Source: a virus. Taken from it: a stretch of DNA of 49,313 nt. The notes below the pieces were generated by a model that worked only from the letters and a program-made list of their open reading frames with translations, ran no database searches and was not told the origin of the DNA. The stretch spans positions 1 through 49,313 of the IMG/VR virus record IMGVR_UViG_3300046336_000121; one strand, 5' to 3'. Shown here one piece after another: positions 12,302 to 44,729 of this stretch. The translations under genes and the position numbers were made by a program. Each line of letters opens with the position of its first letter. Position 1 is the first letter of the stretch.

Positions 12302-12628
12302 TTAGATGTAGTAATTTCGGTGCTCGTACTCAGGTACCATAAGTCTGCGAACACACGAGTCTACTCCACTAGTACCTTGAGCTTCTTGGAGAGATCGCGT
12401 CAAGTCATTTACCCATTGTAGTACAAACATACTCAACTTTGACTGGTCATATGCTGGCCCACGTTGAATGTCGTCAATAAAGTATGTAAATTTAACCTGA
12501 AGCTTTCTCAAATTAGGGGAAGAGTGTGGTAGTGCTCGAGTAGCACTACGAAACATTGCTGATAGCTTATTCGTCATTGCCTCGGAATTGAAAGCTGGGC
12601 GTTGTTGATATTGGGTTTGTTGTTCCAT
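12302..12628 (-). CDS. unknown small protein
   Basis: A 108-residue protein of no recognised family, with a Gln-rich N-terminus and mostly helical character (RSATRALPHSSPNLRKLQVK, then YDQSKLSMFVLQWVNDLTRS). It is isolated on the minus strand, bounded downstream by the bidirectional terminator and upstream by a TATAAATA late promoter on its own strand. That supports it being real and late-expressed. Function unknown. Confidence 0.6.
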   Translation of the reverse strand: MEQQTQYQQRPAFNSEAMTNKLSAMFRSATRALPHSSPNLRKLQVKFTYFIDDIQRGPAYDQSKLSMFVLQWVNDLTRSLQEAQGTSGVDSCVRRLMVPEYEHRNYYI

Positions 12629-12708
12629 GGTTTCCTTGTCAGAACTGAGTTGTTGATATGTGATAAACGCGAATTTAGTATCGTGTTTACTGAGTGAATA
12701 CTCCCGTA

Positions 12709-12716
12709 TATTTATA
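12709..12716 (-). promoter_or_regulatory. late promoter, TATAAATA (minus strand)
   Basis: Reading the minus strand gives a perfect T4-type TATAAATA, 81 bases before the start of the 108-residue minus-strand gene. Confidence 0.5.
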
Positions 12717-12763
12717 TTGTAGTAAACATGTTAATTTTGGAGCATAGTTCACACTCATGTGTA

Positions 12764-12770
12764 CTAAATA
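12764..12770 (+). promoter_or_regulatory. possible late promoter, CTAAATA
   Basis: CTAAATA 100 bases upstream of nrdA, farther than other late sites. RNR is usually early or middle, so this may add late expression or be incidental. Confidence 0.3.
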
Positions 12771-12869
12771 GATCCACTTCATGTGATCCGATCACATACG
12801 AGAAATCTCTTCACGCATTTGATTTGTTATTAGATTCCACACCATCCCTTAACCTGAAAGTCTGAACCC

Positions 12870-14696
12870 TTGACAACCACTCTCCCACCTGCAATAGCAG
12901 GCATTACCGTAGACTACTCACGCGATTCATTGTTTGATCAACTCGGTCTACAGAGGCTCAGAGAATCATATATGACCTCCGACGAGGTCAGTCCACAAGA
13001 GCGGTTCGCTAAAGTATCCAAGCAGTTTTCTAGCAATCCTGAACACGCTCAGCGGTTATACAATTACGCTAGTAAACACTGGTTGAGTTATTCAACGCCA
13101 ATCTTATCACATGGCCGCAACAAGAAAGGTCTTTCTGTTAGCTGCTACCTTAGTTTTTTGCCTGATTCATCTGATGGGTTGGTTGATACCTATAAAGAAA
13201 CCTGTATTCTGAGTATGCTTGGGGGAGGCGTTGGCGTAGGTGTTGGCCTTCGTACTAGCGACGATAAATCTACTGGCGTACTTGCCCATATGAAGACGTA
13301 TGACAGCGCGAGTATGGCCTACAAACAAGGATCTACGCGCAGAGGTAGTTTCGCCATGTATTTGGATATCTCACACCCCGAGATTATCCCATTCTTAGAA
13401 ATGAGAAAACCTACTGGCGATGCTAATACACGTTGCACAAATTTGAATCACGCAGTCAATATCCCAGATGCTTTCATGCACATCATCGAACGATGTATGA
13501 AGGACAGTAATGCTAATGATGATTGGCCACTGATTGATCCATTCAGCAAAGAAGTTACTAAGGTGGTATCTGCCAAAGCTCTCTGGTCTCAACTGCTCAA
13601 ACTCCGCAAAGAAACCGGCGAACCATATTTTCTGTTCATCGACACCGCAAATAAGAAGCTCCCTCACTGGCAAAAAAAATTAGGATTGAAAATCCGACAG
13701 TCGAATCTGTGCTCTGAGATAACACTACCTGTCGATGAAAATCGAACTGCAATCTGCGTACTATCATCTGTAAATGCGGAGTACTACGATGAGTGGAAGA
13801 ACGACAACTTGTTTATATCTGATGTTATGGAAATGTTGGATAATGTGCTGCAATATTTTATAGATAATGCGCCAGATTCGATTGCTCGAGCTCGCTTCTC
13901 AGCTCAACGAGAGAGATCAGTTGGTTTGGGTTTGCTTGGTCTGCACGCATATTTCCAAAAAAATAATGTTGCGTTTGGATCACCCGAATCGCGAGCAATG
14001 AATATCCAAATATTCAAACAGCTAGACGATCAATCACTCGAATCCTCAGAGAGACTTGGGGTAGAGCGTGGAGCAAACCTCGACTATATCGAAGGTGGTG
14101 GGGACATGACCAAACCACTTAGATTCTCTCACAGATGCGCACTTGCGCCAAATGCGTCGTCTAGTTTGATTCTAGGAAACACTTCACCAAGCGCCGAACC
14201 GTTCAGAGCCAACTGCTATCGTCAGGACACACTCTCTGGATTCAACTTCCATCGCAACCCATACCTTGATAAATTGATTATTGCTCTGTGTGCTGCAGAT
14301 AAAAAGTTGGACCGTGATGATATTTGGTCGGACATCAATGCACACGATGGGTCAATCCAACACTCTGATTTATTTGACGCACATACAAAAGACGTGTTCA
14401 AGACAGCAATGGAAATTGACCAACAACATATCATTGATCTCGCTGCTGATCGTCAACCCCACATCGACCAAGCGCAGAGTGTTAATGTGTTCACCAAACC
14501 TAACGTGACTACTAAGGTATTGCACGACATTCACTTCAATGCTTGGAAACAAGAATTGAAGACGCTATATTACCTTAGAAGTGAGAAACTTAAATCTACT
14601 GAAAAAATCTCCAAAACAATCAAACGAGTTAAAATCGACGAACAGTCTCCTACCACAGAAGCTGTTGATTCTACAGAGTGTATCGCCTGCCAATAA
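12870..14696 (+). CDS. nrdA: ribonucleotide reductase class I, large (alpha) subunit
   Basis: A 608-residue NrdA that reduces ribonucleoside diphosphates. It has the substrate cysteines in SVSCYLSF and AICVLSSVN, the thiyl-radical cysteine in SNLCSEI, the GLLGLHAYFQ motif and the redox-active C-terminal tail ECIACQ. The start is a TTG at 12870: the conserved LFDQLGLQRL segment must be included, and an in-frame stop lies at 12855-12857. At about 150 residues shorter than E. coli NrdA it lacks the N-terminal ATP-cone, so overall activity would not be dATP-inhibited. The nrdB start follows 6 bases after. Confidence 0.95.
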   Translation: MTTTLPPAIAGITVDYSRDSLFDQLGLQRLRESYMTSDEVSPQERFAKVSKQFSSNPEHAQRLYNYASKHWLSYSTPILSHGRNKKGLSVSCYLSFLPDSSDGLVDTYKETCILSMLGGGVGVGVGLRTSDDKSTGVLAHMKTYDSASMAYKQGSTRRGSFAMYLDISHPEIIPFLEMRKPTGDANTRCTNLNHAVNIPDAFMHIIERCMKDSNANDDWPLIDPFSKEVTKVVSAKALWSQLLKLRKETGEPYFLFIDTANKKLPHWQKKLGLKIRQSNLCSEITLPVDENRTAICVLSSVNAEYYDEWKNDNLFISDVMEMLDNVLQYFIDNAPDSIARARFSAQRERSVGLGLLGLHAYFQKNNVAFGSPESRAMNIQIFKQLDDQSLESSERLGVERGANLDYIEGGGDMTKPLRFSHRCALAPNASSSLILGNTSPSAEPFRANCYRQDTLSGFNFHRNPYLDKLIIALCAADKKLDRDDIWSDINAHDGSIQHSDLFDAHTKDVFKTAMEIDQQHIIDLAADRQPHIDQAQSVNVFTKPNVTTKVLHDIHFNAWKQELKTLYYLRSEKLKSTEKISKTIKRVKIDEQSPTTEAVDSTECIACQ

Positions 14697-14702
14697 ACTA
14701 CT

Positions 14703-15752
14703 ATGTCCAAAAAGAAATTAAAATTAACAGACCCACGTCCATCGTACAAGCCATTCAACTACCAGTGGTGCTACGAAACGTGGATGGATCACGAACGCAT
14801 GCATTGGGGTCACTGGGAGGCCCCTCTCCTGGAGGATGTTAAAGATTGGAACACCAAATTAACACAGTCTGAACAAAACTTCTTGACCCACATCTTCAGA
14901 TTTTTCACTCAAGGTGACATCAGTGTAGCAAATGCATATGTGATGAATTATCTACCGGTATTTCCCCAACCAGAAGTTCGGATGATGTTGTTAAGTTTTG
15001 CGGCTCGTGAAGCTACTCATATTGCAGCATACTCTAACCTAGTGGAAACGCTAGGAATGCCTGACACAATCTACAATCAGTTCTTAGAATATGATGCGAT
15101 GCGTGAAAAATACGAATATGTTGAGAATTTTATCGGAACTGACACCGAGTCCATTGCTCAACAGCTAGCAGTATTCTCAGCATTCACTGAAGGTATGCAA
15201 TTATTTTCATCATTCATCATGTTATTGAACTTCCCCCGTCACGGAACGATGGTTGGAATGGGCTCAAACATCTCTTGGTCGATCCTTGATGAGAAGTGTT
15301 TGGTTGCCGGCACAGAAGTTATGACACTAGATGGGTGGTTACCTATCGAATGTGTCACACTATCTACTGAACTGTTAGAGTATGATACCGAAACCAGTCA
15401 GACTAATTTTGTGACTCCAACCAATCTTACCAAGAAAACAGTACCGACAGTGTACCATTTTAAGGGTGAAGGTTTCTCACAATCAGTATCACCAAATCAT
15501 AGAATGATTTTAGAGATGGGTGATGGTCGGATACAGGACGTTCAGGCGAAGGATATTGAATCTGTAACTGAGGAGTTTAGTTACGTGTGCTCGGGCACTA
15601 AGAGTGGCTCCTTGAAAGTATTGACAGACAAGCATAAGGAATTGTGTAGACTCACCAAAGAAGGTGTATTGTCTTTGGAGTGGGTATTGCCACTGCTCCC
15701 AATAATGGACTCATCGTGGGCGAAGGAATTTCTACTAGAGTACATGAGCTGA
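14703..15752 (+). CDS. nrdB: RNR small subunit, N-terminal half fused to split-intein N-fragment
   Basis: A 349-residue protein in two parts. Residues 1-198 are the N-half of NrdB (SEQNFLTHIFRFFTQGDIS; FAAREATHIAAY with metal ligands and the likely radical Tyr110), ending SWSILDEK. At Cys199 the sequence becomes an intein (CLVAGTEVMTLDGWLPIE, block A; SVSPNHRMIL, block B with a histidine). The C-half resumes in another gene at 16950. The break falls inside the iron-ligand motif DEK/CH, so the enzyme cannot work until trans-splicing joins the halves. The tail after block B (LSLEWVLPLLP, AKEFLLEYMS) resembles the start of a LAGLIDADG endonuclease domain, probably a remnant. Confidence 0.92.
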   Translation: MSKKKLKLTDPRPSYKPFNYQWCYETWMDHERMHWGHWEAPLLEDVKDWNTKLTQSEQNFLTHIFRFFTQGDISVANAYVMNYLPVFPQPEVRMMLLSFAAREATHIAAYSNLVETLGMPDTIYNQFLEYDAMREKYEYVENFIGTDTESIAQQLAVFSAFTEGMQLFSSFIMLLNFPRHGTMVGMGSNISWSILDEKCLVAGTEVMTLDGWLPIECVTLSTELLEYDTETSQTNFVTPTNLTKKTVPTVYHFKGEGFSQSVSPNHRMILEMGDGRIQDVQAKDIESVTEEFSYVCSGTKSGSLKVLTDKHKELCRLTKEGVLSLEWVLPLLPIMDSSWAKEFLLEYMS

Positions 15753-15780
15753 AGAGAATATTACGTGGTACAACGAAGAC

Positions 15781-15787
15781 ATAAATA
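15781..15787 (+). promoter_or_regulatory. late promoter, ATAAATA
   Basis: ATAAATA preceded by C, 28 bases before the GIY-YIG endonuclease. It would give the endonuclease its own late expression, as known for T4 homing endonucleases. Confidence 0.55.
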
Positions 15788-15814
15788 TGGTACCACGTAA
15801 CATCTTGAATCTGA

Positions 15815-16774
15815 ATGAATTATATCGTGTACCAGACAACTAACGTAATCAATGATCGCATATATGTGGGGATCCACAAGCAGTTTGCCGATCAATTTGA
15901 TGGGTATTTGGGTTCGGGTATATTGTTAGCTAGGGCCGTCGAAAAATATGGTAGAGATAACTTTGTGAGAATCACATTGCATGAGTGTGACACTTGGGAC
16001 GAAGCTCGAGCTGTAGAACGTCAACTAGTTGACGTTAATTTTGTATCAAGGGATGATACCTACAACATAGCAATAGGTGGCCAAGGTGGAGACACACTAG
16101 CGGGTGTACCTGATTATGTGCGTCAAACCGCAAGGTCAAAAGCTACCGCTACGCGTGCAAAAACATCTGCTGCCCGGCGATTATTAAATGGTGGTAGTTA
16201 CTATTCGGCGGATGAACTAGAATGTGTGACTAGGCGCAACATCAAGCGGTTGCAAGACCACCCACATAGTATTCCCAACAACACAGGACGAGTGTATACT
16301 GAAGAAGCAATAGAGATTAGGCGCAAGGCCTCAGCAACTCGAGTAGGGAAGTTTAGGTGGATTACTGATGGTACAACGTCGACACAAATGCTAAAAACAG
16401 CCCAACTACCAGTTGGGTGGAGATTTGGTAAACATCCACCCCCACCCCAAATCCGTACTGCTGCCCAAAGGATGCAAGTATCAAATCACCCAAATATTAG
16501 GGGTGTAATTTGCTATACAGATGGCACAACCAATCTGAAGCTTCAGCCTAATATAGATCCTCCAATTGGATTCTGGGCTGGGATGACCCAAAAGAAGCGC
16601 GATAAGCAGTGGATAACCAACGGCACTGAATCTAAAACTATTGGTAGGCTAGCTGAGATACCAACTGGGTGGAAATTAGGTAGAACCATAAAACACATTG
16701 ACAAACTGCTAGCCGCTGCAGCAGCGGCTCGCGCAAAAACATTAACTAGTGCTCAGAATACAACAAATGAATAA
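15815..16774 (+). CDS. GIY-YIG homing endonuclease inside fractured nrdB
   Basis: A 319-residue Seg-like endonuclease. The GIY-YIG core is IVYQTT...RIYVGIHK (residues 4-22), followed by LGSGILLARAVEKYG and a conserved Glu in AVERQL near 68. The C-terminal half has three copies of a short DNA-binding-type repeat: WITDGTT..LPVGWRFGK, CYTDGTT..PPIGFWAG and WITNGTE..IPTGWKLGR. It sits exactly in the gap between the two intein halves of nrdB and has its own late promoter. By analogy it cuts intein-less nrdB alleles and spreads the insertion; this is inferred, not shown. Confidence 0.9.
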   Translation: MNYIVYQTTNVINDRIYVGIHKQFADQFDGYLGSGILLARAVEKYGRDNFVRITLHECDTWDEARAVERQLVDVNFVSRDDTYNIAIGGQGGDTLAGVPDYVRQTARSKATATRAKTSAARRLLNGGSYYSADELECVTRRNIKRLQDHPHSIPNNTGRVYTEEAIEIRRKASATRVGKFRWITDGTTSTQMLKTAQLPVGWRFGKHPPPPQIRTAAQRMQVSNHPNIRGVICYTDGTTNLKLQPNIDPPIGFWAGMTQKKRDKQWITNGTESKTIGRLAEIPTGWKLGRTIKHIDKLLAAAAAARAKTLTSAQNTTNE

Positions 16775-17624
16775 AACAAATACGGATATTATCAATATGC
16801 TTCAGGCGATTGCTGGTAGCTTACCACCGATCCCCAAATCAGCAGTACAAGTGACCAAAGAACTTCAGTCAACAGAAGTGTTTTGTCTCAGCGTCCCTGG
16901 TACAGCGTTTCAAATTAGACATGCTAACACACTATCCATTTCTGGTAATTGTCATACAGACGCTATGATTAAGTTGTTCCGTGTGTTTATTGAGGAAAAT
17001 CGACACATCTGGAAAGATAGCCTGAAGAGTCAACTCTATACAATTGCAGAGCGCATGGTTGATTTGGAGGATAAGTTTATCGATCTCGCGTTTGAGATGG
17101 GTGAAATGAAAGACCTTACGGCAGCTGATGTGAAGTTGTATATTAGGTACATTGCAGATCGCCGATTGATCGCCCTTGGATTAAAGGGGATATTCAAAAT
17201 TAAAAAGAATCCGCTACCATGGGTAGAGCAGATGATTGATAGCGTAACTCACGGAAACTTTTTCGAACAAAAAGTATTTGAGTATTCCAAAGGTGCTACA
17301 GAGGGTGATTGGGATGACGTCTGGGGCCAATACAGCGGTGATGATGCTCCAATGTTTGGTTCAGCAGATCGATATGTTGGAATTCCAGAATTTACTGTAT
17401 ATTCCAAACCCGGCTGTCCACAGTGCGATCAAGCTAAAGCGCTACTGACAAACAAGGATAAACAATTTATAACCAAGATGTTGGATGTTGACTTCACGCG
17501 TGATGACTTTAGTGAGAAGTTTCCAAGCGCTCGAAGCTTCCCGCAAATAGTGTGCCCTGATGGCACCTCCATTGGCGGACTGCCTGATCTGCATAAATAT
17601 CTCACTAATTTGGTTGTGAATTAA
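16767..17624 (+). CDS. nrdB: split-intein C-fragment, RNR small subunit C-half and glutaredoxin fusion
   Basis: The chosen ATG (16767) overlaps the endonuclease stop. A GTG at 16749 is the alternative start. Residues 1-61 are the intein C-fragment, ending TLSISGN with Asn61 before Cys62 (+1). The penultimate residue is Gly, not the usual His. From Cys62 (CHTDAMIKLFRVFIEENRH) the NrdB C-half continues through the last metal-ligand helices. The final ~75 residues are a glutaredoxin (FTVYSKPGCPQCDQAK, with CPQC), which could supply electrons to the large subunit. After trans-splicing the product would be a full NrdB-Grx fusion. Confidence 0.92.
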   Translation: MNKTNTDIINMLQAIAGSLPPIPKSAVQVTKELQSTEVFCLSVPGTAFQIRHANTLSISGNCHTDAMIKLFRVFIEENRHIWKDSLKSQLYTIAERMVDLEDKFIDLAFEMGEMKDLTAADVKLYIRYIADRRLIALGLKGIFKIKKNPLPWVEQMIDSVTHGNFFEQKVFEYSKGATEGDWDDVWGQYSGDDAPMFGSADRYVGIPEFTVYSKPGCPQCDQAKALLTNKDKQFITKMLDVDFTRDDFSEKFPSARSFPQIVCPDGTSIGGLPDLHKYLTNLVVN

Positions 17625-17628
17625 TAAA

Positions 17629-18660
17629 ATGCCAGGAACCTACGTAGTCGACCATAGCGACAATACAAAACCACAGATTATAATTCCCCCACTGAGTTTC
17701 GACCACTCAACATCACTCAAGATGGTTGGGTATCGATCTCCAGTGTACGGAGAATTGATTTGGGAGAATATGCTCCATACAATGGAGCACTTCGCGAGTG
17801 ATTATCCCCCTGTCAACCCAACCCCGGGGCAGATGTGGTATGATACTGGAGCCCAGGAGTTGAAATTGTACGACTCTGTTGGAGTCTGGCAATTAGTCTG
17901 GCCAATTCCTGAGGAAGTAATCGTTAGCCCTAATCAACCAGCAAATGAAATTGGTTTGCTCTGGCACAATACCGCGGTCAATAAGTTATACATCTGCGAC
18001 ACAGCTGGTACATGGCAATTAGTCTGGCCGATTGAGCAACCCTATCCAGCAGTTTGGGTTAGCAACCCCAGCACACTGATTGGTGCTGGGATTTGTCTGG
18101 CTGTCGGTGCCCAATGGTATCAATACGACACAGGGAATGGTGATGGTGTAGCAATCTTCCGAGGTAGGGACTTTGCAACTGAAGCTGGAGGAGTTACAAT
18201 TCCCTCTGGCAGCAATCCACCCGCGTATCTAAGTTATTCATATACAAATCCGACAAATCAATCGGTACTATTTGAAGCAGACCTCACTGGACACGGCAAT
18301 TTGTATTATGGATTACCCAACGCCGCATTTGGTTTGGTTTATACAATCGGTGAGAATTTAAATATAACAATGCCTGCTGGATACAGTGGTAATGGTGACC
18401 CAAATCTACAAGGCACGATGAGACAGGATGTGTACTCTTCGGGCCTCAATACGCGAAGTGCTGGCGGCTTCGACGTCTACACAGAATCTACTGTATCAGG
18501 AGCGAGATTTTTCAAAGTTATCCCACCTGGTGGAACGGTGACAGTATACGCTCAATGGTGGGGCATTCTATATCAAGCCCATAGTTGGAACGGATACGCT
18601 GTAATTCACGGCAATATGGCAATGAAAGTTAAAGTAACACGCGGAGGAGCATATCTATGA
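17629..18660 (+). CDS. virion/tail-fibre-like structural protein, paralogue A
   Basis: A 343-residue protein. The first ~100 residues (MPGTYVVDHSDNTKP, MVGYRSPVYGELIWEN, PGQMWYDTGAQELKLYD) are shared with the protein at 19140. The GQxWYDT..LKLYD..WQ segment repeats, as in phage collar/fibre and receptor-binding proteins. The C-terminal half is Gly/Thr/Asn-rich beta sequence with no recognised enzyme motif. It is likely a late structural or adhesion protein carried on the virion. It overlaps the next gene by ATGA. Confidence 0.6.
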   Translation: MPGTYVVDHSDNTKPQIIIPPLSFDHSTSLKMVGYRSPVYGELIWENMLHTMEHFASDYPPVNPTPGQMWYDTGAQELKLYDSVGVWQLVWPIPEEVIVSPNQPANEIGLLWHNTAVNKLYICDTAGTWQLVWPIEQPYPAVWVSNPSTLIGAGICLAVGAQWYQYDTGNGDGVAIFRGRDFATEAGGVTIPSGSNPPAYLSYSYTNPTNQSVLFEADLTGHGNLYYGLPNAAFGLVYTIGENLNITMPAGYSGNGDPNLQGTMRQDVYSSGLNTRSAGGFDVYTESTVSGARFFKVIPPGGTVTVYAQWWGILYQAHSWNGYAVIHGNMAMKVKVTRGGAYL

Positions 18661-23878: not shown

Positions 23879-24844
23879 ATGGTAATGACGGTACAAGACT
23901 ACATCGATAAATATGGTAACGATCGAGGGGTTGAGAAATTTGAGGCTACCCAACGGCGATTGGCTATACGAGCACAAACTTACGCCACTCACCCGTATAC
24001 ACGACTAACCAAGGAGTGGTTTGTGTGGAGATATCCACTAGATGGTTTAACTAGATTTAATAATCATGTGAATAAATCCAGGCAGTCGGAAGAAAATATG
24101 ATTGCTAGGTGGGGTGAAGAGTTAGGTAGAAAAAAATGGCAGGACACTGTCGCTAAGAAGAACACTGTCGCTCTAGTCCGAGCAAGTGGTGGAGAGGTTG
24201 CGGTAGATGCAATGCATGCAAAACGAAAAGCTGCTATTGATAAGTATTGGTCCAATCTATCTGAGACAGAACGGCAATACCACATCACGACGAGAGCTGC
24301 GAAATCATCCGCAACCAAAAAAGAGCGATATGGTAATAAAACAAAGCTCCAAATTTACATCGACAAGCATGGTGAGCTTGGTCACGAATTATACGCCCGT
24401 TACCTCCAGAAAATTTTCAAGTCTATCGGCCATTCGAAGGAAGCTGAAATACTAATCGATCGAGTGTTGTTGGAAAATCCATGGCTATTAAATTACTCGC
24501 TGTATTACAGAAGTTCCTCCGACAAATCCAAATGTGAGTGGTTTTTGAGTTCTAAGAGTGGTGTTAATTTTTATGATTTCTGTGTACGTGAAGCCAAATC
24601 AATTTTAGAGTATGATGGATTTCGGTGGCACCCAACTAAACAGCAAGCTGAGGAATTTCCTGATGAGCTGATGGAGATAACTGGCATGACATATGCACAA
24701 AAATATTCAAAAGACCAAGCTAAAATACAAATGGCTGAAGATCGAGGGTACAAAGTCTTTGTCGTCCGATCTGACTTCACGGAGCAACAAACAGTAGAAG
24801 TTCTGAGCGAATTTATTAACTATACTACAGAAAGATTACAATGA
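23879..24844 (+). CDS. free-standing Vsr-like (EDxHD) homing endonuclease
   Basis: A 321-residue protein. The C-terminal catalytic core is LEYDGFRWHP (Glu244, Asp246, His251), then a KDQAK helix and YKVFVVRSDF, the Vsr-like/EDxHD arrangement. The N-terminal two-thirds hold repeated short modules of the form YIDKYGxxxG, MIARWGEELGRKKW and YIDKHGELGHELY, shared with the endonuclease at 27944 and likely DNA-binding. It lies between the folE operon and queD under its own late promoter, and its stop overlaps the queD start, so it looks like an inserted mobile gene. Its cutting site is unknown. Confidence 0.75.
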   Translation: MVMTVQDYIDKYGNDRGVEKFEATQRRLAIRAQTYATHPYTRLTKEWFVWRYPLDGLTRFNNHVNKSRQSEENMIARWGEELGRKKWQDTVAKKNTVALVRASGGEVAVDAMHAKRKAAIDKYWSNLSETERQYHITTRAAKSSATKKERYGNKTKLQIYIDKHGELGHELYARYLQKIFKSIGHSKEAEILIDRVLLENPWLLNYSLYYRSSSDKSKCEWFLSSKSGVNFYDFCVREAKSILEYDGFRWHPTKQQAEEFPDELMEITGMTYAQKYSKDQAKIQMAEDRGYKVFVVRSDFTEQQTVEVLSEFINYTTERLQ

Positions 24845-25356
24845 CCCCACAACATCAGCCAATCGCATACAAATTCACATCCACAAAAGAGTACGTTGAC
24901 GCATTCCCGTGTGCATATCGCCAGTGGAAATCAGACACCTGGTGCAACACTGTACACGGGTACTGTTTTTCAATGAAGTTTTACTTCGGTACAAATGATC
25001 TTGACAAAAGAAACTGGGTTTGTGACTATGGCGGCCTCAAAGAATTAAAACAAGTTTTGGCAGATCAATTTGACCATACACTACTAGTCGCCCAGGATGA
25101 TCCATATATTACGCTCTATGAAGCAATGCAGAGTGCAGGCATTGCTAAGCTAACGATCCTCCCTAGATTGGGCTGTGAAGGATTGGCAGACATGTTATAC
25201 AAATACGTCAATGGCGTTTACATTCCCGACATGTTGGGGCAAAGCGAAGCTGAGCGGCTCTGGTGCTATAAAGTTGAGGTCCGTGAAACACAAGCGAATA
25301 TGGCCTTTCGGGAAGGTCACAGAGAGTGGAATGAAGATCTACTCTCTGAATTTTAA
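24841..25356 (+). CDS. queD: QueD-like 6-carboxytetrahydropterin synthase family protein
   Basis: A 171-residue protein of the 6-pyruvoyl/6-carboxy-tetrahydropterin synthase fold. Markers are FPCAYRQWKSD, TVHGYCFSMKF, WVCDYGGLKELK and FDHTLLVAQDDP. The second step of 7-deazaguanine synthesis converts the FolE product. In canonical QueD three His bind zinc (AAHR and HGH); here they read AYR and HGY, so only His39 remains. Phage relatives I recall carry the same change, so either the metal site is different or another residue substitutes. It ends with a strong terminator, so it closes the folE operon. Confidence 0.75.
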   Translation: MTPQHQPIAYKFTSTKEYVDAFPCAYRQWKSDTWCNTVHGYCFSMKFYFGTNDLDKRNWVCDYGGLKELKQVLADQFDHTLLVAQDDPYITLYEAMQSAGIAKLTILPRLGCEGLADMLYKYVNGVYIPDMLGQSEAERLWCYKVEVRETQANMAFREGHREWNEDLLSEF

Positions 25357-25384
25357 TCCTACTACAATCTAGCTAACAACTCAC

Positions 25385-25411
25385 AACTCACCTGATAATA
25401 TTAGGTGAGTT
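25385..25411 (+). terminator. intrinsic terminator after queD
   Basis: AACTCACCT (25385-25393) pairs with AGGTGAGTT (25403-25411), loop of 9, followed by TTATCTTTTC. It closes the operon before the polymerase gene. Confidence 0.8.
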
Positions 25412-25445
25412 TTATCTTTTCTTAGTATACAAAACACCCAAATCA

Positions 25446-27941
25446 ATGTACATTGCAGCTAGTAGACACTTCGATCACGTAACCATCTGGGAACAACGCC
25501 TGACACCTAACCACGCCCCGACGATTAAGACAGTCAGGGCGCTGTACAATTGCTACATCAAGTGTAGCGACTGGTACTCAACCCACGCTGAGTTTAGTGA
25601 TTCGGTAGAAGAAGGAACGCCTGATGGAGTGTTAAAAAAGTTTCTGGGGCTTGGTACTACTGCAATTGATGAAACTACCAAATATCAATCAATGTTTGGT
25701 GATGATTTGTATGAACTAGAATTCTCAAATAAGAAGGAGATGTCGAAGTTTCTAGATAGCAAACCAATCGATGTTGATTTATTTGAGAGCGACATTCCAC
25801 CTGAACTAAAGGCGCTGAGTGCGCTGTATTATAAATGTGAATTGCCTCACATCAACACAACATACTATGACATCGAGGTAGATTACCGGCCCAAAAAGTA
25901 CGACGCGGACCATAAAATCAAACTTCGCAATATTGGTTCAGAATCCTTCGAAGCTACAGTTTGGGACCTTCGCGATTATAGGAGCGATCCTGATGTTGAG
26001 GTGTGGGATGAGCCGGTAAAGAAGTGGGTGGCGGTTAAAAATTCATTGTACACATACGATGGGCCAATCGGTTTCAGCTCACCACTCGATCCATACGCAC
26101 CACTAAACTCAATTGCGTTCTACCACACCTGGAAAGACGAGTACGTCATCTTTTCTGTCCCACCCAAGTCCTGGACAGGATGCAATGTCGAAGAACTGTT
26201 TGACTACAGTTTATTTGAAGATATTGATTCCAAGGTTACAATTGTGTTCTGTAAAAATGAGACTGAGCTACTCACTCGGTCCGTTGAGGAAATTCAACAA
26301 TCAGATTTGTTGTCTGGTTGGAACTCCTCACGATTTGATGATCCATACTTCGCTAAACGAGTGGAGATTGTGTTAGGCAAAGAGTGGTTGCAGATGCTGT
26401 CATTTCCAAAAGGTAAAGCGCCGTGGTTCCAGACCAAAGAAGTATTCTTCCAAGAGCAATTATTTGTTCAGTTTGATGGCCGCGTCACACTCGACTACAT
26501 GGAGTTATTCAAGAAGTTTACAGTCGAGGATCGAGACTCGTGGAACTTGGAAACTGTTTCCCAGGACCATCTCGGCGAGCGATTCAAGAAGTTGGATTAC
26601 GAAGGCACTCTGCACCATCTGTACAACAACAACTTTAGTAAGTTTGTGAGGTACAATTGCCGTGACACTGAAATTCTTCGAGAGTTAGATAAGAAGTATA
26701 AATTTATAAATTTAGCTAATACACTAATTCATGAATCTACGTGCCATTTCAAAAACATTGTGGGTACTGTCCGGTCTGCAGAGATGGCTATCAATAATTA
26801 CTGTTGGTACGAGTTAAATGTTCGGGTCCCTGATACAAAACAGCTAGACGAACAAGGGCAAGCTGCCGGTGCATATGTGTTAGTTCCGCAAACTGGTATG
26901 CATAACTGGATAGTTTGTTATGATATAAATTCTCTATACCCAAATACAATCCGCACCGTCAACATTTCACCCGAGACGTTAATCGGACAATTCAGTGAGT
27001 TTGAGTCTGCGTGGACTGAGATTAATGCTGGGTCAACCGCCCAATTAACATTTAGATGGGAAAAAACTCAGGAAGTAGAAACTAAGTCAGCTAGAATGTG
27101 GAAGGAGCATCTCATTGAACTGAAGTATGCCATTTCAGGGTACGGTACAGTTTTCCGCCAAGATGTTGAAGGCATCATTCCAGCATTACTCGGTAGGTGG
27201 TATTCGACAAGGAAGCAATTCCAAGCTCAATCCAAACAAGTATTGGGTGCCATAGCAGCAACGACTGATGCTCATCAAGCGGCATTACTGCAGACAGAGT
27301 ATGAATTCGCAGATATGACGCAATATGCGATGAAAATTAAGCTCAATTCAGCATACGGTGCATTACTCAATCAAAATTTCCGGTTCTATGATAAGCGGAT
27401 GGGGCAATCAGTGACTGCAACAGGTAGGTGCATACTCGGGCACCAAATTCGCAAGGGTTGTGAAATTATAGATGGAGATTACAACATCAACCCAATTACT
27501 AGTGATGAAGACCCACGGGCGATCAACAACGAGATTGCAAGCCCATGTCTGATCTATGGCGACACCGACTCGGTTGTTGGGGGTACCGCGATTTATGTAA
27601 ACGGAATTCAAAAAACTATTGCCCAGTTTTACGAGGAGCAGCCAGGTGATTTCATAAAACACGACCCGATTACCAACAATTATGTCAAGCGAGTAGTCGG
27701 CTCAACGAGTGTGGGTTTTGATGGGTCCAACCCAGTAACCAAACCCATTAATTATGTCATGAAACATACTGTCAAAAAACGCATGTTTGAGGTTAGGGTA
27801 AATGGAGCATCGGTTACTATAACAGCTGATCACTCCATTATAGTCCGCCGCGGCACTGAAATAATAAGCACAACACCGATGAATATAGTAAGGGGGGATA
27901 AGTTGATTAGTGTAAATACCCCCGAATCTGTATCTCCATAA
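25446..27941 (+). CDS. gp43: DNA polymerase, N-terminal part fused to split-intein N-fragment
   Basis: An 831-residue protein. Residues 1-708 are a family B (T4 gp43-type) polymerase: exonuclease motifs TYYDIEVDYR, NSSRFDDPYF and NCRDTEILR, then palm motifs CYDINSLYPNTIR and KLNSAYGALLNQ, ending LIYGDTD. At Ser709 an intein N-fragment (123 residues) begins: SVVGGTAIYVNG (block A) and TITADHSIIV (block B, TxxH). The break is in the catalytic motif YGDTD/S, a known intein site in PolB proteins. The second half is encoded at 29025 after an endonuclease gene, so polymerase activity depends on trans-splicing. Confidence 0.93.
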   Translation: MYIAASRHFDHVTIWEQRLTPNHAPTIKTVRALYNCYIKCSDWYSTHAEFSDSVEEGTPDGVLKKFLGLGTTAIDETTKYQSMFGDDLYELEFSNKKEMSKFLDSKPIDVDLFESDIPPELKALSALYYKCELPHINTTYYDIEVDYRPKKYDADHKIKLRNIGSESFEATVWDLRDYRSDPDVEVWDEPVKKWVAVKNSLYTYDGPIGFSSPLDPYAPLNSIAFYHTWKDEYVIFSVPPKSWTGCNVEELFDYSLFEDIDSKVTIVFCKNETELLTRSVEEIQQSDLLSGWNSSRFDDPYFAKRVEIVLGKEWLQMLSFPKGKAPWFQTKEVFFQEQLFVQFDGRVTLDYMELFKKFTVEDRDSWNLETVSQDHLGERFKKLDYEGTLHHLYNNNFSKFVRYNCRDTEILRELDKKYKFINLANTLIHESTCHFKNIVGTVRSAEMAINNYCWYELNVRVPDTKQLDEQGQAAGAYVLVPQTGMHNWIVCYDINSLYPNTIRTVNISPETLIGQFSEFESAWTEINAGSTAQLTFRWEKTQEVETKSARMWKEHLIELKYAISGYGTVFRQDVEGIIPALLGRWYSTRKQFQAQSKQVLGAIAATTDAHQAALLQTEYEFADMTQYAMKIKLNSAYGALLNQNFRFYDKRMGQSVTATGRCILGHQIRKGCEIIDGDYNINPITSDEDPRAINNEIASPCLIYGDTDSVVGGTAIYVNGIQKTIAQFYEEQPGDFIKHDPITNNYVKRVVGSTSVGFDGSNPVTKPINYVMKHTVKKRMFEVRVNGASVTITADHSIIVRRGTEIISTTPMNIVRGDKLISVNTPESVSP

Positions 27942-27943
27942 AC

Positions 27944-29017
27944 ATGCTAACCTTACGAACACTACGCAATAAAGCAACTACATTCAACCTAGACATATCA
28001 GATATCGACTTAATTAAATACCAGCAACTGAGTAAGCAATTGGAAGATAGTGGGAACAAAAATCACCACAAGTTTACGTATAACTTCTTGAAATATGAAA
28101 TTCATAAGATCGAACCTAATATGTTTGATCGGTATTGGAGGATTGTTATTGAGCATAAAGGAGGGTTATCCCACACATATGACCGCTACGTATTATCATA
28201 CGGCGCTTACGCAGATGCAAAATGGGCCGCACGTCGGGCATTCATGGCTGAAAAAAATACATTTGTGTATAAATCGCGTACACATGGGTGGACCCTCGAT
28301 CAGTTTGATGAATACAACTCAACCAGAAAGCAGACTAAAGAAAGAATGATCGCCCGCCATGGTGAACAAGAGGGGTTGCTTAGATGGACCAGTTATGTCG
28401 AGAAGCAACGAACTGCAGGAGTATCCCTACAGTGGTTCCAGGACAAGCATGGGGTGGATGAGGGGTTGGTAGTATGGGATGCGCTATGTAAATCTAAAGC
28501 CCACACAATTGACAACTATATCCAACGGTATGGGGATATTGAGCTTGCTACTCAGAAATTGGTTGAGAAGTTCTCAAATCAATTTAACTTTTATTCCGTA
28601 AAGTCGCAAGTATTGTTCGACTTAATAGTCAATGACTTACAGCTTCCGGATGAGCACGTATATTACGCCACAAAAAATACCGAATTTGGGTCATTTGACC
28701 CGTTGGGTAGACGATTTTACAAATATGATTACGTTGATACCAACCACAAGATTTGTATAGAATTCAACGGGGATCACTATCATGGGAATCCAACGCTATA
28801 TGGTCCAACCGACTTCCCAAAAGCACTCCGCGGTAGAGGCAGAAAAACCGCATCTCAGTGTTGGGACGCAGACGCTAAAAAACTTGCCCACATACAAAGC
28901 CGGAACTATCGCACTATAGTAGTGTGGGAGCGAGATTTTGATCGTGATCCCAGCCACGTGCTTGACATAATACGTGCAGAATATAAACTACCACCTCGTG
29001 ATCCCCCTGAAGAGTAA
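27944..29017 (+). CDS. Vsr-like (EDxHD) homing endonuclease inside fractured DNA polymerase
   Basis: A 357-residue protein filling the gap between the two intein-polymerase halves, 2 bases after the first and 7 before the second. The C-terminal catalytic part is IEFNGDHYHGNP (Glu273, Asp277, His280), followed by a WDADAKKLAHI helix and YRTIVVWERDF, the EDxHD/Vsr-like pattern reported with split inteins of fractured genes. N-terminal modules (MIARHGEQEGLLRW, FQDKHGVDEG, YIQRYGD) match those of the endonuclease at 23879. Presumed role: cutting uninterrupted polymerase genes to spread the insertion. Confidence 0.88.
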   Translation: MLTLRTLRNKATTFNLDISDIDLIKYQQLSKQLEDSGNKNHHKFTYNFLKYEIHKIEPNMFDRYWRIVIEHKGGLSHTYDRYVLSYGAYADAKWAARRAFMAEKNTFVYKSRTHGWTLDQFDEYNSTRKQTKERMIARHGEQEGLLRWTSYVEKQRTAGVSLQWFQDKHGVDEGLVVWDALCKSKAHTIDNYIQRYGDIELATQKLVEKFSNQFNFYSVKSQVLFDLIVNDLQLPDEHVYYATKNTEFGSFDPLGRRFYKYDYVDTNHKICIEFNGDHYHGNPTLYGPTDFPKALRGRGRKTASQCWDADAKKLAHIQSRNYRTIVVWERDFDRDPSHVLDIIRAEYKLPPRDPPEE

Positions 29018-29024
29018 AAAATAG

Positions 29025-29978
29025 ATGAATATAGTTGAGACAGATAATTTTGAAATTATTGATTTGGGTCTACAAGAGCTTGATGTGTACGACATTGAGG
29101 TTGATGGGGTACATAATTTTTTCGCCAACGGTATATTGGTGCACAACAGTTTGTATTGTTCACTCAGTGAGATAATCCCACCCAATGCCAATCCAAACCT
29201 TGTAGTTAAGATTGCTGACAAGATAGGTCATGAGATCAATGCCTCATTCCCCGCGTACAATCGATCAGCATTCTTGGTACAACCCGGGTTCGACCAGCAC
29301 ATTAAAACTGGTAGAGAATTGGTTGCTGATAAAGGATTTTTCATTCAGAAGAAGCGGTATGTCATCCATGTGATCGACAAAGAAGGCAAGGCCAAGGATG
29401 AACTGAAGGCTATGGGGGTCGACATGCGCAAGACTACGACCCCCCGCCCCGTCAAAGCATTCCTGCGATCTACGTGTCACAAAATGCTTACAGGAACCCC
29501 TGATGAAGAGCTAGATGATTTTATCATGGAATATCGTGATGAAATGATTGATGAGATTGATCTAATGGATCTCGGCCTTCCAAAAGGTATCAAGGGAATT
29601 GAACAGTACACAGCCTCGTTTAGAGACTACCCAACTACACGCCTACCCGGCCATGTATCAGCAGCAATTTTATATAATGATTTTAGACAAGCTGCGGGAG
29701 ATACTGAGTCGCTGTTAATATCGAGTGGTATGAAAATTAAGATTTTCAAACTAAAATATGAAATGGAACACGCCGGTCGTATGTTTAAGGCGATTGCTGT
29801 CCCGACAGATGAGGAGATGATTCCTCAGTGGTTCAAGGATGAATTCTTTGATAAAATTGATAGGCAACGCCACGTTGGTATGTTGGTTGACAATATGCTG
29901 CATAATATGTTCGATTCGATTCCCAGACAAGTCCCCACTCGCCAAAGTAAGGCGTATGAGTCTGACTTCTCGTTTTGA
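29025..29978 (+). CDS. gp43: split-intein C-fragment and DNA polymerase C-terminal part
   Basis: A 317-residue protein. Residues 1-41 are the intein C-fragment (ELDVYDIEVDGVHNFFANG, ILVHN; canonical His-Asn end), and Ser42 is the +1 residue. From Ser42 (SLYCSLSEI) the polymerase palm resumes directly after YGDTD, followed by the thumb. The C-terminus (RQSKAYESDFSF) suggests a clamp-binding tail like those of other gp43 proteins. Joined, the extein would be about 984 residues, close to T4 gp43 (898) and its relatives. Confidence 0.93.
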   Translation: MNIVETDNFEIIDLGLQELDVYDIEVDGVHNFFANGILVHNSLYCSLSEIIPPNANPNLVVKIADKIGHEINASFPAYNRSAFLVQPGFDQHIKTGRELVADKGFFIQKKRYVIHVIDKEGKAKDELKAMGVDMRKTTTPRPVKAFLRSTCHKMLTGTPDEELDDFIMEYRDEMIDEIDLMDLGLPKGIKGIEQYTASFRDYPTTRLPGHVSAAILYNDFRQAAGDTESLLISSGMKIKIFKLKYEMEHAGRMFKAIAVPTDEEMIPQWFKDEFFDKIDRQRHVGMLVDNMLHNMFDSIPRQVPTRQSKAYESDFSF

Positions 29979-29986
29979 CGCTTTTG

Positions 29987-29994
29987 TATAAATA
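29987..29994 (+). promoter_or_regulatory. late promoter, TATAAATA
   Basis: A perfect TATAAATA 30 bases before the inner-membrane spanin gene. Confidence 0.7.
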
Positions 29995-30023
29995 GACCAC
30001 AGACCAACAGTGGCCATACGCAC

Positions 30024-30452
30024 ATGAGTATATCAATAATTGTATCTTTATTAAGACGAGTACCACTCGCCGCCTGGGGGTATGGCGTATGTTCGATAGT
30101 CATTATCGTCATGTATGGTATGCTGCAACACTCACAATCAGTGGTATCTAAACTCGAAGTCAAAGTTAAACAACAAGAAACAGATTTAATTGTTGCTTCA
30201 GAGTTGAATACCCAACAAGCAGATAGCTTCCGAGACACAATAGCACTCCAAAATGCGGCTGTCAACAAACTCAAGACCCAAGTTATTGAGCAACAAACGA
30301 GAGTAACCACTGCTGAAAAGTCCAACCAACGAGTGGTTGTCGATGGCAACCGCAAGATTGCGACTATTCGCCAGGATGAAAATATTGCCCTTACTTGTGT
30401 TGATGCAATTAGTGTGCTAAGAAACCTAGAGGCCTTACAATGGAAAAAATAA
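30024..30452 (+). CDS. inner-membrane spanin (Rz-like)
   Basis: A 142-residue protein. Residues ~17-35 are a single transmembrane segment (AAWGYGVCSIVIIVMYG) with a short basic N-terminus, followed by a long periplasmic helical/coiled-coil region (KLEVKVKQQETDLI). This is the i-spanin layout. The o-spanin lipoprotein starts inside its 3' end in another frame. The pair fuses inner and outer membranes at lysis, which indicates a Gram-negative host. Expressed from the adjacent late promoter. Confidence 0.85.
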   Translation: MSISIIVSLLRRVPLAAWGYGVCSIVIIVMYGMLQHSQSVVSKLEVKVKQQETDLIVASELNTQQADSFRDTIALQNAAVNKLKTQVIEQQTRVTTAEKSNQRVVVDGNRKIATIRQDENIALTCVDAISVLRNLEALQWKK

Positions 30453-30733
30453 TTTTACCCGTCGTGTTGTGTGTACTACTCAGTGGATGCTTTGCGCTCC
30501 CGAAATCTAAGTTTGTTCGAGTAGAAACCCAAGTTGTTGAAGTGCCTGTTGCACTGGATCTACCCAAGGTTGTAGTGCCACCCCGCCCCGCCCTAGAAAT
30601 TGCTAAAATCACTCCTACAAGCTCAGTATCAGAGTTGGTAATTGCGTATAGAGTCACAATTGTGCAATTGCAGACTTACGCTAGCCAGCTAGAATCACTG
30701 TTGAATGCGGTGAATCAAACCCCATCGAAGTAG
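30440..30733 (+). CDS. outer-membrane lipoprotein spanin (Rz1-like)
   Basis: A 97-residue lipoprotein. The signal peptide is hydrophobic with a lipobox, LLSGC, Cys17 being the lipidated residue. The mature part is proline-rich near its N-terminus (VVVPPRP) and then helical, as in o-spanins. It overlaps the i-spanin gene by 13 bases. Confidence 0.88.
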   Translation: MEKIILPVVLCVLLSGCFALPKSKFVRVETQVVEVPVALDLPKVVVPPRPALEIAKITPTSSVSELVIAYRVTIVQLQTYASQLESLLNAVNQTPSK

Positions 30734-30745
30734 TGTTGTGACCAC

Positions 30746-31060
30746 ATGAGACTCGAAACTGTACTCGCGGAATCTGCACTAAGCACATCATTGCTAACAA
30801 TTGCGGCTGGATTCGCAACAGGGATAGTTGCTTTTAATATGAACAAAAAGCTCAAAGTGATGATCCCAGCTAGCAAGAAGTTTCAGGATATCGTGAAGTT
30901 GCCTCCCTATCAACGAACATCACTCACATTCACTGCGGACGACAAGAAAACGATTGATGAAACTCAACACCTAGTGGATATGCTTATCAAGAAAGCATCA
31001 TACAAAATATCCAAGACCGGCACAGGTATCCTTCACAAATCGTGGGAATTGCGGCTCTGA
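30746..31060 (+). CDS. unknown membrane-anchored small protein
   Basis: A 104-residue protein with one likely membrane segment near the N-terminus (SLLTIAAGFATGIVAFNM) and a basic, helical cytoplasmic or periplasmic remainder (KKASYKISKTG). It follows the spanins by 12 bases, so a lysis-related role is possible, but nothing specific is recognised. Confidence 0.5.
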   Translation: MRLETVLAESALSTSLLTIAAGFATGIVAFNMNKKLKVMIPASKKFQDIVKLPPYQRTSLTFTADDKKTIDETQHLVDMLIKKASYKISKTGTGILHKSWELRL

Positions 31061-31078
31061 GTTCTTAACACCACGCAG

Positions 31079-31085
31079 ATAAATA
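31079..31085 (+). promoter_or_regulatory. late promoter, ATAAATA
   Basis: ATAAATA 28 bases before the gene at 31113. Confidence 0.55.
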
Positions 31086-31112
31086 ATTAACTAACTACAG
31101 TAGTAACATACC

Positions 31113-31484
31113 ATGGCATCATTCTCAGACTCTACATCAGCATACGTTGTGTTGGTAAACAACACAATCCACAGCATAACTAGCGAACGCTCTATTGCAG
31201 ATGCTATTTCAGCAGATACTAGAGGGAGTGTAGTACAAGCATTCCCAATTATCACATCATACCAACCTCAAGTAGCAGTGACAGAAGCACACGATGTGCC
31301 AACATTTGGTGAATTTTTGGATAGCTTGCCAAATAAGACTACAGTCCCAACAATCGCCGATATTTTCAAAGGCAAAAAATCTGCAAGCAAACTGACGTCT
31401 ATTTCACATCAAGTGAAACAAGACTCCAATACTGCGTATGTAGTTGTAGATACACTTGCTGTAATCGATCACCCAACTCCATGA
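31113..31484 (+). CDS. unknown small protein
   Basis: A 123-residue protein of unrecognised family. It has beta-rich halves (AYVVLVNNTIHS; TAYVVVDTLAVID) and a basic central linker. It overlaps the next gene by four bases and follows a late promoter, so it may be virion-associated; this is only suggestive. Confidence 0.5.
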   Translation: MASFSDSTSAYVVLVNNTIHSITSERSIADAISADTRGSVVQAFPIITSYQPQVAVTEAHDVPTFGEFLDSLPNKTTVPTIADIFKGKKSASKLTSISHQVKQDSNTAYVVVDTLAVIDHPTP

Positions 31485-31798
31485 TACTGTCCGACTTACA
31501 ATTAGCACTACTAGCCCAACTGTGGCAATCACGAGATTCGGCGATTGATTGTTACAACTTGGTAAATGCTAACACCAAGACACTGTCTTTTGGCAAACTC
31601 TTGGAATCCGAACACTTGATTTCGATAGGCCCTGAGAGCGTTGTTGTGGATGTAGTTGCAACTCAAGCGAAGTGTGTTGAGTATGGTATTATCGATGATG
31701 TCGGAGAGTTGACAGAACTAGGACAGAGCTACATCGACATGGTGATTACCGAATCATTACAAGCGATGTTTCTTCACAATCGAGCAAAACGACACTAG
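31481..31798 (+). CDS. unknown small protein, winged-helix-like appearance
   Basis: A 105-residue protein coupled to the previous gene by ATGA overlap. The helix-turn-strand pattern ending in VGELTELGQSYIDM resembles small winged-helix proteins, but the match is weak. A 9-bp hairpin overlaps its stop. Confidence 0.45.
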   Translation: MILSDLQLALLAQLWQSRDSAIDCYNLVNANTKTLSFGKLLESEHLISIGPESVVVDVVATQAKCVEYGIIDDVGELTELGQSYIDMVITESLQAMFLHNRAKRH

Positions 31799-31814
31799 TG
31801 GTTCTCCACTAGTG
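31793..31814 (+). terminator. hairpin at operon end
   Basis: CACTAGTGG / CCACTAGTG with a TTCT loop, overlapping the last codons of the 31481 gene. It lacks a T-run, so it may act in RNA stability rather than termination. Confidence 0.45.
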
Positions 31815-32157
31815 AGTACCTGTGTTGTCGGTAATGATACGTAGTGGGTATAAAATTTAGAACTAAGACTTTCCTCAACGACACTAGCGATATACAAACT
31901 GAAGTAATGTGTCGCCGCCGGCACCTCTCCGCAGATTGTAGTAAAGTCCTGCCACAATACCTCAAGTGATAATATTATGTGGGTGCATGATTGATCTACT
32001 AAAAAACCTTTCACGTGATCGTCAATTAAAACATCCGGAAAAAAGGTATGTAATTTTCCGTTGCGGGTAATGGTCTGTAGTTTCTTCACGTGTATGTTGA
32101 GCTGAGTGCTGAGATATTCAAGGTGTACTTAGTCGGACTATCCTTGTAGTCACGCTC
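31815..32157. other. non-coding gap
   Basis: About 340 bases with no supported gene. A 110-codon minus-strand frame (31757-32089) has a GTG start, no ribosome site and no internal Met, and it runs across the hairpin at 31793. It is not called. A late promoter ends the gap. Confidence 0.4.
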
Positions 32158-43889: not shown

Positions 43890-44321
43890 ATGAAACAGCA
43901 ACTATTTTTATCACAAGAACAGTTTACCAACTGGTTGATTGCTCTGCGCTCTGGCGAATATAATCAAGGTAGAGTACTTCTTAGAACTGAGGATAAAGAA
44001 GTAGGTACGTGTTCTCACTGTTGCCTTGGTGTACTGTGTGAGGTTTCTGGGTTTAAATTTGATGATACGTGTGGGTATTACTTTGATGAAGTTACTGGTC
44101 GTAGATCATCGCATAAATTTCCAACGCTAGATGAGAAAACAGAAAATCCATTAGTTATTGTTACATCTGATGAACAACTAGAGTTTGTCAAAAAGATGCA
44201 GGATAAAACTGGATATAGGATTGGGAATCAGCAATTAGCGTCAATCAATGATTCTGGCAAGTTTACGTTTAGTGACATTGCAGATATTATCGAAATGTTT
44301 TTTGAACCATCCCATCTATAA
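43890..44321 (+). CDS. conserved phage protein with CCLGVLC motif
   Basis: A 143-residue protein of a family seen in many phages, marked by NWLIALRSGEYNQGRVLL and HCCLGVLCEVSG. The cysteines could bind a metal. Function not known. It has the AAGGAAATTCAAAAATG-type leader. Its last 15 codons are duplicated at 45122-45171. Confidence 0.7.
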   Translation: MKQQLFLSQEQFTNWLIALRSGEYNQGRVLLRTEDKEVGTCSHCCLGVLCEVSGFKFDDTCGYYFDEVTGRRSSHKFPTLDEKTENPLVIVTSDEQLEFVKKMQDKTGYRIGNQQLASINDSGKFTFSDIADIIEMFFEPSHL

Positions 44322-44326
44322 GGAAA
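44277..44326 (+). repeat. 50-base repeat, copy 1
   Basis: The end of the 43890 gene and its downstream ribosome site (GCAGATATTATCGAAATG through CATCTATAAGGAAA) recur at 45122-45171 with 3 differences in 50. Confidence 0.85.
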
Positions 44327-44337
44327 GAGAAAATAAA

Positions 44338-44649: not shown

Positions 44650-44729
44650 AATCTCAACCATCAATGTTGTAGCAAATACCCAAATATGTGTATGATTGTT
44701 GTAACCAACAAACTTTGAGGAAATTCAAA

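What the first reader, a model, noticed from the sequence alone, without database searches (positions are those of the whole stretch)
14703..17624. NrdB fractured by a split intein with a GIY-YIG endonuclease in the gap
The two halves of the RNR small subunit are separate genes, each ending or starting with an intein fragment (Cys1 at 15297-15299; Asn61/Cys62 before 16950). The break is inside the metal-ligand motif DEK/CH. The gap holds a GIY-YIG gene with its own late promoter. Split inteins with free-standing endonucleases at fractured genes are known from metagenomes, so the arrangement type is described. This RNR/GIY-YIG combination may be new.
Basis: partly seen in the sequence, partly recalled or inferred. 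Interest (0 to 1): 0.85.

Follow-up and report, generated by a model that had tools for sequence, protein, structure and literature searches.

The report
Mobile split intein fracturing phage nrdB
A phage gene for a DNA-building enzyme has been cut in two by a selfish element that should re-join the protein halves after translation, and near-identical phages still carrying the uncut gene indicate that the element jumped recently.

Summary
NrdB-Grx is encoded in two ORFs that end and start in intein halves (Cys1 at 15297; Asn/Cys+1 at 16947-16952). They break the ligand motif E-K|C-H, and a GIY-YIG ORF lies between. The closest relative is the naturally split AceL NrdHF intein (PDB 6zgq), from a fractured nrdHF that also has a GIY-YIG gene in the gap and that trans-splices in vitro. 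The combination is therefore already described.

(1) Five IMG/VR contigs, about 99% identical in this region, have an intact nrdB. Mismatches pile up within 43 bp and 15 bp of the insert, like a co-conversion tract from recent homing, and those 15 bp supply the required Cys+1. (2) Three of these siblings instead carry a different split intein, with an HNH gene, in nrdA, where the window is empty. (3) Family members at the same codon run from LAGLIDADG cis-inteins to split ones with or without GIY-YIG; the window intein is split inside a LAGLIDADG relic. (4) The intein has both Cys1 and the class-3-type C2:4 Cys; a hairpin precedes the GIY-YIG gene, as in T4.

Splicing and cleavage are inferred, not shown.

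The parts
14703..15296 (+). NrdB N-extein, 198 codons, ends ...SILDEK
   Evidence: Pfam PF00268 E=3e-44; 99% identical to intact siblings
15254..15296 (.). upstream conversion tract: 7 mismatches to siblings in 43 bp, none changing the protein
15297..15752 (+). IntN: 151 residues plus stop; Cys1 15297-15299; H68-R-M70 block N3
   Evidence: PDB 6zgq match E=1.7e-18; family alignment; model and Foldseek
15621..15749 (+). IntN tail: degenerate LAGLIDADG (motif-1 helix 'LTDKHKEL..', start of motif-2 helix 'SSWAKEF'), cut by the stop before the second motif
   Evidence: collinear with L151, PA-SR01 and phiTE cis inteins; three helices in the model
15758..15803 (+). hairpin between IntN stop and GIY-YIG start (arms 15758-15771 / 15790-15803)
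   Evidence: z = -3.4, 0 of 200 shuffles; inverted repeat; different-sequence hairpins at the same place in L156 and L150
15780..15787 (+). CATAAATA, late-promoter-like (7/8) in the hairpin loop; weak
   Evidence: exact TATAAATA at the matching place in L150
15815..16774 (+). GIY-YIG homing endonuclease-like ORF, 319 aa, with repeated 'W(I)T(D/N)G...P.GW..G' units
   Evidence: Pfam E=2.7e-6; phrog_314 E=2.6e-33; homologues in L150, L156
16767..16949 (+). IntC: 61 residues, ATG overlaps the GIY-YIG stop by 8 bp; C2:4 Cys 16884-16886; ends ISGN
   Evidence: same 8-bp overlap in L150
16950..16964 (.). downstream conversion tract: 9 of 15 bases differ from siblings; VHADS in siblings becomes CHTDA; supplies Cys+1
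16950..17624 (+). NrdB C-extein plus fused glutaredoxin
   Evidence: PF00268 E=4e-17, PF00462 E=3e-8
13142..13143 (+). nrdA site (nrdA 12870-14696) empty here; filled in siblings by a 1286-bp split-intein + HNH cassette

Best explanation
This is a 1,653-bp mobile split-intein cassette (15297-16949) inserted at codon 199 of nrdB. It encodes IntN, a GIY-YIG endonuclease and IntC. Proposed action: (1) the two nrdB halves are translated separately; IntN and IntC associate through the Hint fold and splice in trans, giving a NrdB-Grx of about 422 residues with E197-K198-C199-H200 restored [inferred from homology]. (2) In mixed infection the GIY-YIG protein cuts the uninterrupted nrdB at this site; repair from the filled allele copies the cassette together with short flanks, which replace the recipient's codon (Val in the siblings) by the Cys+1 that splicing needs [allele pair and tract seen; cutting inferred]. 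(3) A hairpin ahead of the endonuclease gene limits its translation, as at T4 I-TevI, SegB and Aeh1 MobE [inferred]. (4) Evolution: a LAGLIDADG cis-intein at this site lost its endonuclease, and a GIY-YIG gene entered the relic, splitting the gene and taking over mobility [inferred from the series of homologues].
For: Intact 422-aa NrdB-Grx in five contigs otherwise about 99% identical around the site. 16 mismatches in the 58 bp that touch the insert, against 4 in 2,402 bp around them (binomial P about 3e-31). In the uninterrupted NrdB genes surveyed, the +1 position is Leu, Met, Gln, Ile, Val or His and never Cys (132 matches); all inteins found at this codon have Cys+1. Homology to AceL NrdHF, shown to trans-splice with a half-life of about 4 min. 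Same break with GIY-YIG in L150 and L156, without it in L153; cis LAGLIDADG forms in L151 and phage PA-SR01; cis relic form in L152. The split clade is separated from the LAGLIDADG clade at 99/98 support. pN is far below saturated pS for IntN, IntC and GIY-YIG. Hairpins. No group I intron.
Against: No splicing or cleavage assay. The direction of change is not proved: siblings could have lost the cassette by recombination with an empty allele, which would leave the same mismatches. Only one record holds this filled allele; searches for its intein and its flank found no second copy. It is a metagenome contig, though a chimera would need two crossovers in identical sequence. The late-promoter part is weak, and the L150 hairpin is not better than shuffles (z -0.97).
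Confidence: 0.82

Rival explanations
1. The siblings lost the cassette: the filled allele is ancestral and an empty nrdB from another phage replaced it by ordinary recombination.
For: The two genomes are mosaics of identical and several-percent-divergent blocks, so recombination is common. The mismatch pattern alone does not give direction.
Against: The tract is only 43 and 15 bp long and ends exactly at the insert, as expected of endonuclease-driven repair. Cys+1 is absent from all uninterrupted NrdBs surveyed, so the window's flank is of the intein-bearing type placed in a background otherwise identical to the siblings.
Confidence: 0.13
2. A group I intron with a GIY-YIG ORF interrupts nrdB and is removed from the mRNA.
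For: GIY-YIG genes are usual in phage group I introns, including in RNR genes (PMC2988022).
Against: No Rfam match even at E up to 5. The sequence on both sides of the GIY-YIG ORF is conserved protein with an intein fold and splicing residues, kept under purifying selection.
Confidence: 0.02
3. The halves do not splice but assemble non-covalently into a working NrdB, like the genes-in-pieces NrdA of phage Aeh1.
For: Precedent for a fractured RNR subunit active without splicing (Friedrich 2007, cited in PMC10448857).
Against: Cys1, block N3 His, C2:4 Cys, terminal Asn and Cys+1 are all kept across four divergent split members, which non-covalent assembly would not need. Here the break separates two metal ligands three residues apart.
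Confidence: 0.04
4. Decaying insertion: a broken nrdB, with activity supplied by the host RNR.
For: Single record of this filled allele.
Against: All three ORFs are open, exteins are 99% identical to siblings, and the cassette family is under purifying selection.
Confidence: 0.03

Closest known systems
AceL NrdHF split class 3 intein (PDB 6zgq; Hoffmann et al. 2020, PMC7891396)
   Same: Same host protein type (R2), same E..H ligand motif, split intein, GIY-YIG gene in the gap, 38% identity in the aligned intein, Met at N3:12, Cys at C2:4, Gly instead of His before the last Asn
   Different: AceL has Ala1, Ser+1 and insertion one codon earlier (DE|SMH), IntN 98 aa. Window has Cys1, Cys+1, DEK|CH, Ser at C1:5, IntN 151 aa with a LAGLIDADG relic, and a near-identical uninterrupted allele exists
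Fractured genes (Dassa et al. 2009, NAR 37:2560; known here through citing papers)
   Same: Gene broken by split-intein halves with a free-standing endonuclease gene between
   Different: Here there is an allele pair with conversion tracts, and the gap gene is GIY-YIG
Cis LAGLIDADG inteins at the same NrdB codon: Aquifex aeolicus (PMC8772380), Pseudanabaena phage PA-SR01, contig L151
   Same: Same insertion codon (E-x|C-H); PA-SR01 and L151 also have Cys1 plus C2:4 Cys
   Different: Single ORF, LAGLIDADG endonuclease intact or nearly so, no GIY-YIG gene
T4 GIY-YIG homing endonucleases (I-TevI, Seg) (PMC2988022)
   Same: GIY-YIG endonuclease, hairpin before the gene, late-promoter-like site, asymmetric co-conversion
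   Different: Carried by a group I intron or intergenic, not inside a split intein

Membership tests
Fractured gene with split intein | host protein encoded in two ORFs, first ending in IntN, second starting with IntC | tested here: met
Fractured gene with split intein | break at the place where cis inteins carry their endonuclease domain | tested here: met
   alignment with L151, PA-SR01, phiTE
Fractured gene with split intein | free-standing endonuclease gene in the gap | tested here: met
   GIY-YIG
Fractured gene with split intein | protein trans-splicing | not testable with these tools
   inferred from AceL NrdHF biochemistry
Class 3 intein | no nucleophile at intein position 1 | tested here: not met
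   Cys1; so not filed as class 3 on the definition used in PMC7891396
Class 3 intein | Cys at C2:4 (block F:4) | tested here: met
   Cys 16884-16886, kept in all family members aligned (the AceL chain is the C124A mutant)
Class 3 intein | WCT triplet, or MCT as in AceL | tested here: not met
   window has Met, Cys, Ser; L150, L152, L153, L156 have Met, Cys, Thr
Class 1 intein | Cys1 or Ser1 acts as first nucleophile | not testable with these tools
   Cys1 present; its use needs C1A and C2:4 mutants
Mobile homing element | uninterrupted allele in near-identical genomes | tested here: met
Mobile homing element | co-conversion of flanking sequence | tested here: met
   16/58 against 4/2402 mismatches
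Mobile homing element | endonuclease cuts the empty site | not testable with these tools
   needs purified protein
Group I intron | group I core structure | tested here: not met

The most novel reading that the evidence does not exclude
Split-intein 'fractured genes' are active homing elements in present-day phage populations. They arise when a GIY-YIG gene invades the relic LAGLIDADG domain of a cis-intein, and their class-3-type chemistry (C2:4 Cys) predates the loss of Cys1. Two different cassettes, in nrdA and in nrdB, sit in turn in otherwise near-identical phages.
Probability: 0.55. Interest if true: 0.72.

Novelty: new member of a known kind. Interest (0 to 1): 0.62.

Why it matters
How split inteins arise and whether they still move are open questions. 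This locus supplies a natural filled/empty allele pair, a candidate endonuclease, and intermediates between a LAGLIDADG cis-intein and a GIY-YIG split intein. All are small enough to test in E. coli with purified proteins and plasmids. The family, with both Cys1 and the C2:4 Cys, is also suited to asking how class 1 chemistry turns into class 3, and could give new fast split inteins for protein ligation.

Tried and rejected
Close-relative searches with IntN and with the GIY-YIG protein in IMG/VR found nothing, so no donor is known. A scan with an NrdB profile returned only uninterrupted genes, because ranking favours full-length matches; the degenerate C-junction pattern then found the family. 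A pattern for the AceL-type junction, the exact window flank and a Cys1 N-junction pattern found nothing. Pfam does not recognise the LAGLIDADG relic; it rests on collinear alignment with cis homologues. In pairwise shuffle tests the IntN tail against PA-SR01 is better than 498 of 500, while the start of IntC is weaker. Phage records near the site are otherwise intact NrdB. The Dassa 2009 and Tori & Perler 2011 papers are not held in the library, so their detail is from citing papers or memory. The structure models are of modest confidence (pLDDT 68 and 62) and are used only as support.

Full report
Observation. The window encodes nrdA (12870-14696) followed by two ORFs that together make one NrdB-glutaredoxin. 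The first (14703-15752) holds NrdB residues 1-198 and then an intein N-half starting with Cys1 at 15297. The second starts at ATG 16767 with a 61-residue intein C-half ending in Asn61, followed by Cys+1 at 16950. Pfam R2 coverage is contiguous across the break (profile 4-193, then 193-281). The ORF between (15815-16774) is a GIY-YIG homing-endonuclease homologue. The break separates the two ligand residues of D-E-K|C-H. The Aquifex aeolicus R2 intein sits at this codon too, between Glu228 and His231 (PMC8772380).

What the intein is. The joined halves match the AceL NrdHF split intein at E = 6e-24. A model of IntN alone finds the same structure first, then other inteins. PMC7891396 reports that AceL NrdHF comes from an nrdHF gene in fractured organisation with an intervening GIY-YIG gene, and that it trans-splices with a half-life of about 4 minutes. 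The RNR/GIY-YIG/split-intein combination is therefore not new. The differences are Cys1 instead of Ala1, Cys+1 instead of Ser+1, Ser instead of Thr at C1:5, insertion one codon later, and a 50-residue IntN tail.

Filled and empty alleles. Five IMG/VR contigs (L001-L005) carry an uninterrupted 422-residue NrdB-Grx in a background about 99% identical to the window. The insert is 15297-16949. Mismatches are concentrated next to it: 7 in 15254-15296, none changing the protein, and 9 in 16950-16964, changing VHADS to CHTDA. Around them there are 4 in 2,402 bp (P about 3e-31). This is what co-conversion by a homing endonuclease leaves. The longer tract is on the 5' side; I-TevI produces such an asymmetry by staying bound to one side (PMC2988022). 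In the uninterrupted NrdBs of this type that I collected (132 matches), +1 is never Cys; every intein found at this codon has Cys+1. The conversion tract thus brings in the nucleophile that splicing needs. Direction (gain here against loss in siblings) is strongly suggested but not proved.

Reciprocal cassette. Three siblings that cover the site (L002, L003, L005; L002 shows only the 3' part) have a 1,286-bp insertion in nrdA between window positions 13142 and 13143. It encodes an intein N-half (CFESNTLVETSEG...), an HNH endonuclease homologue on the opposite strand (phrog_655 homing endonuclease E = 4e-24, phrog_12434 HNH endonuclease E = 7e-11) and an intein C-half (...KAVVHN|C). The window's nrdA is empty there. 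So near-identical phages carry different split-intein cassettes in the two subunits of one enzyme. The window and the two siblings that cover it share the fractured DNA polymerase gene.

Family and origin. A degenerate pattern for the C-junction in viral contigs gave six true relatives at the same codon. They are: L151, a cis-intein with LAGLIDADG; L152, a cis-intein with a relic domain; L150 (and its duplicate L154) and L156, split with GIY-YIG in the gap; and L153, split with only about 30 bp between the halves. Phage PA-SR01 has a LAGLIDADG cis-intein there as well. The window's IntN tail aligns with the first LAGLIDADG helix and the start of the second, and the start of IntC aligns with the helix after it. 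The split lies inside a degenerate LAGLIDADG domain. In the tree, the split forms, AceL and L152 form a clade (99/98) apart from the LAGLIDADG forms. L152 is sister to L150 and may be a re-fused form or an unsplit ancestor. IntN, IntC and GIY-YIG all show far fewer nonsynonymous than synonymous differences, with synonymous sites saturated.

Splicing chemistry. All Cys1-bearing members also have the C2:4 Cys, and the split ones and L152 have Met at N3:12, mostly with Thr at C1:5, the AceL pattern (the AceL chain in the alignment is the C124A, N146A mutant). By the definition in PMC7891396 (no nucleophile at position 1) the window intein fails class 3; by chemistry it may still work that way. 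Mixed class 1/class 3 signatures are, from memory of Tori & Perler 2011 (not held), known in other inteins.

Regulation. Between the IntN stop and the GIY-YIG start lies a hairpin (15758-15803, z -3.4) with CATAAATA in its loop. L156 has a hairpin of different sequence at the same place (z -2.4). In L150 an 11-nt inverted repeat encloses the ribosome-binding site, with TATAAATA at its foot, although its overall fold is not better than shuffles. PMC2988022 describes this layout for I-TevI, SegB and MobE, where long early transcripts hide the ribosome-binding site and short late ones do not. In the window the promoter match alone is no better than chance.

Verdict. Confirmed fractured nrdB with a split intein and GIY-YIG gene; a new member of the AceL NrdHF kind. 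Its main value is the filled/empty allele pair, the reciprocal nrdA cassette and the LAGLIDADG-to-GIY-YIG series. Splicing, cleavage and direction of transfer remain to be shown.

Noticed in passing
25446-29978: Second fractured gene: family B DNA polymerase broken at YGDTD|S, N-half 25446-27941 (TIGR01445 intein_Nterm), endonuclease-like ORF 27944-29017 (phrog_22677, looks like the EDxHD/Vsr type), C-half 29025-29978 (TIGR01443 intein_Cterm...GILVHN|S). Present at 99% identity in two siblings.
   Followed up: partly
23879-24844: Free-standing ORF related to the polymerase-gap endonuclease (phrog_22677 E=4e-11), with an exact TATAAATA about 24 bp upstream.
   Followed up: no
L156:1941-4182: NrdA split intein at a different site (SNLC), two adjacent ORFs with no endonuclease gene between; the same contig also has the fractured nrdB.
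   Followed up: no
L152:1634-2311 (- strand): Cis-intein at the same nrdB codon with a relic LAGLIDADG domain, sister to the split L150; possibly a split intein that became one gene again.
   Followed up: partly
44338-45121: About 785 bp present in the window and absent from sibling G004, bounded by a repeat of roughly 38 bp (TTGCAGATANTATCGAAATGTTTTTTGAACCATCCCAT).
   Followed up: no
17885-18033: Repeat unit of about 126-147 bp in the tail-protein-like ORF; siblings have about two more copies than the window.
   Followed up: no
12365-13041, 25170-26378, 29484-32045, 43919-44335: Blocks of several percent divergence between window and siblings separated by long identical stretches: mosaic exchange, partly around endonuclease genes.
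   Followed up: no
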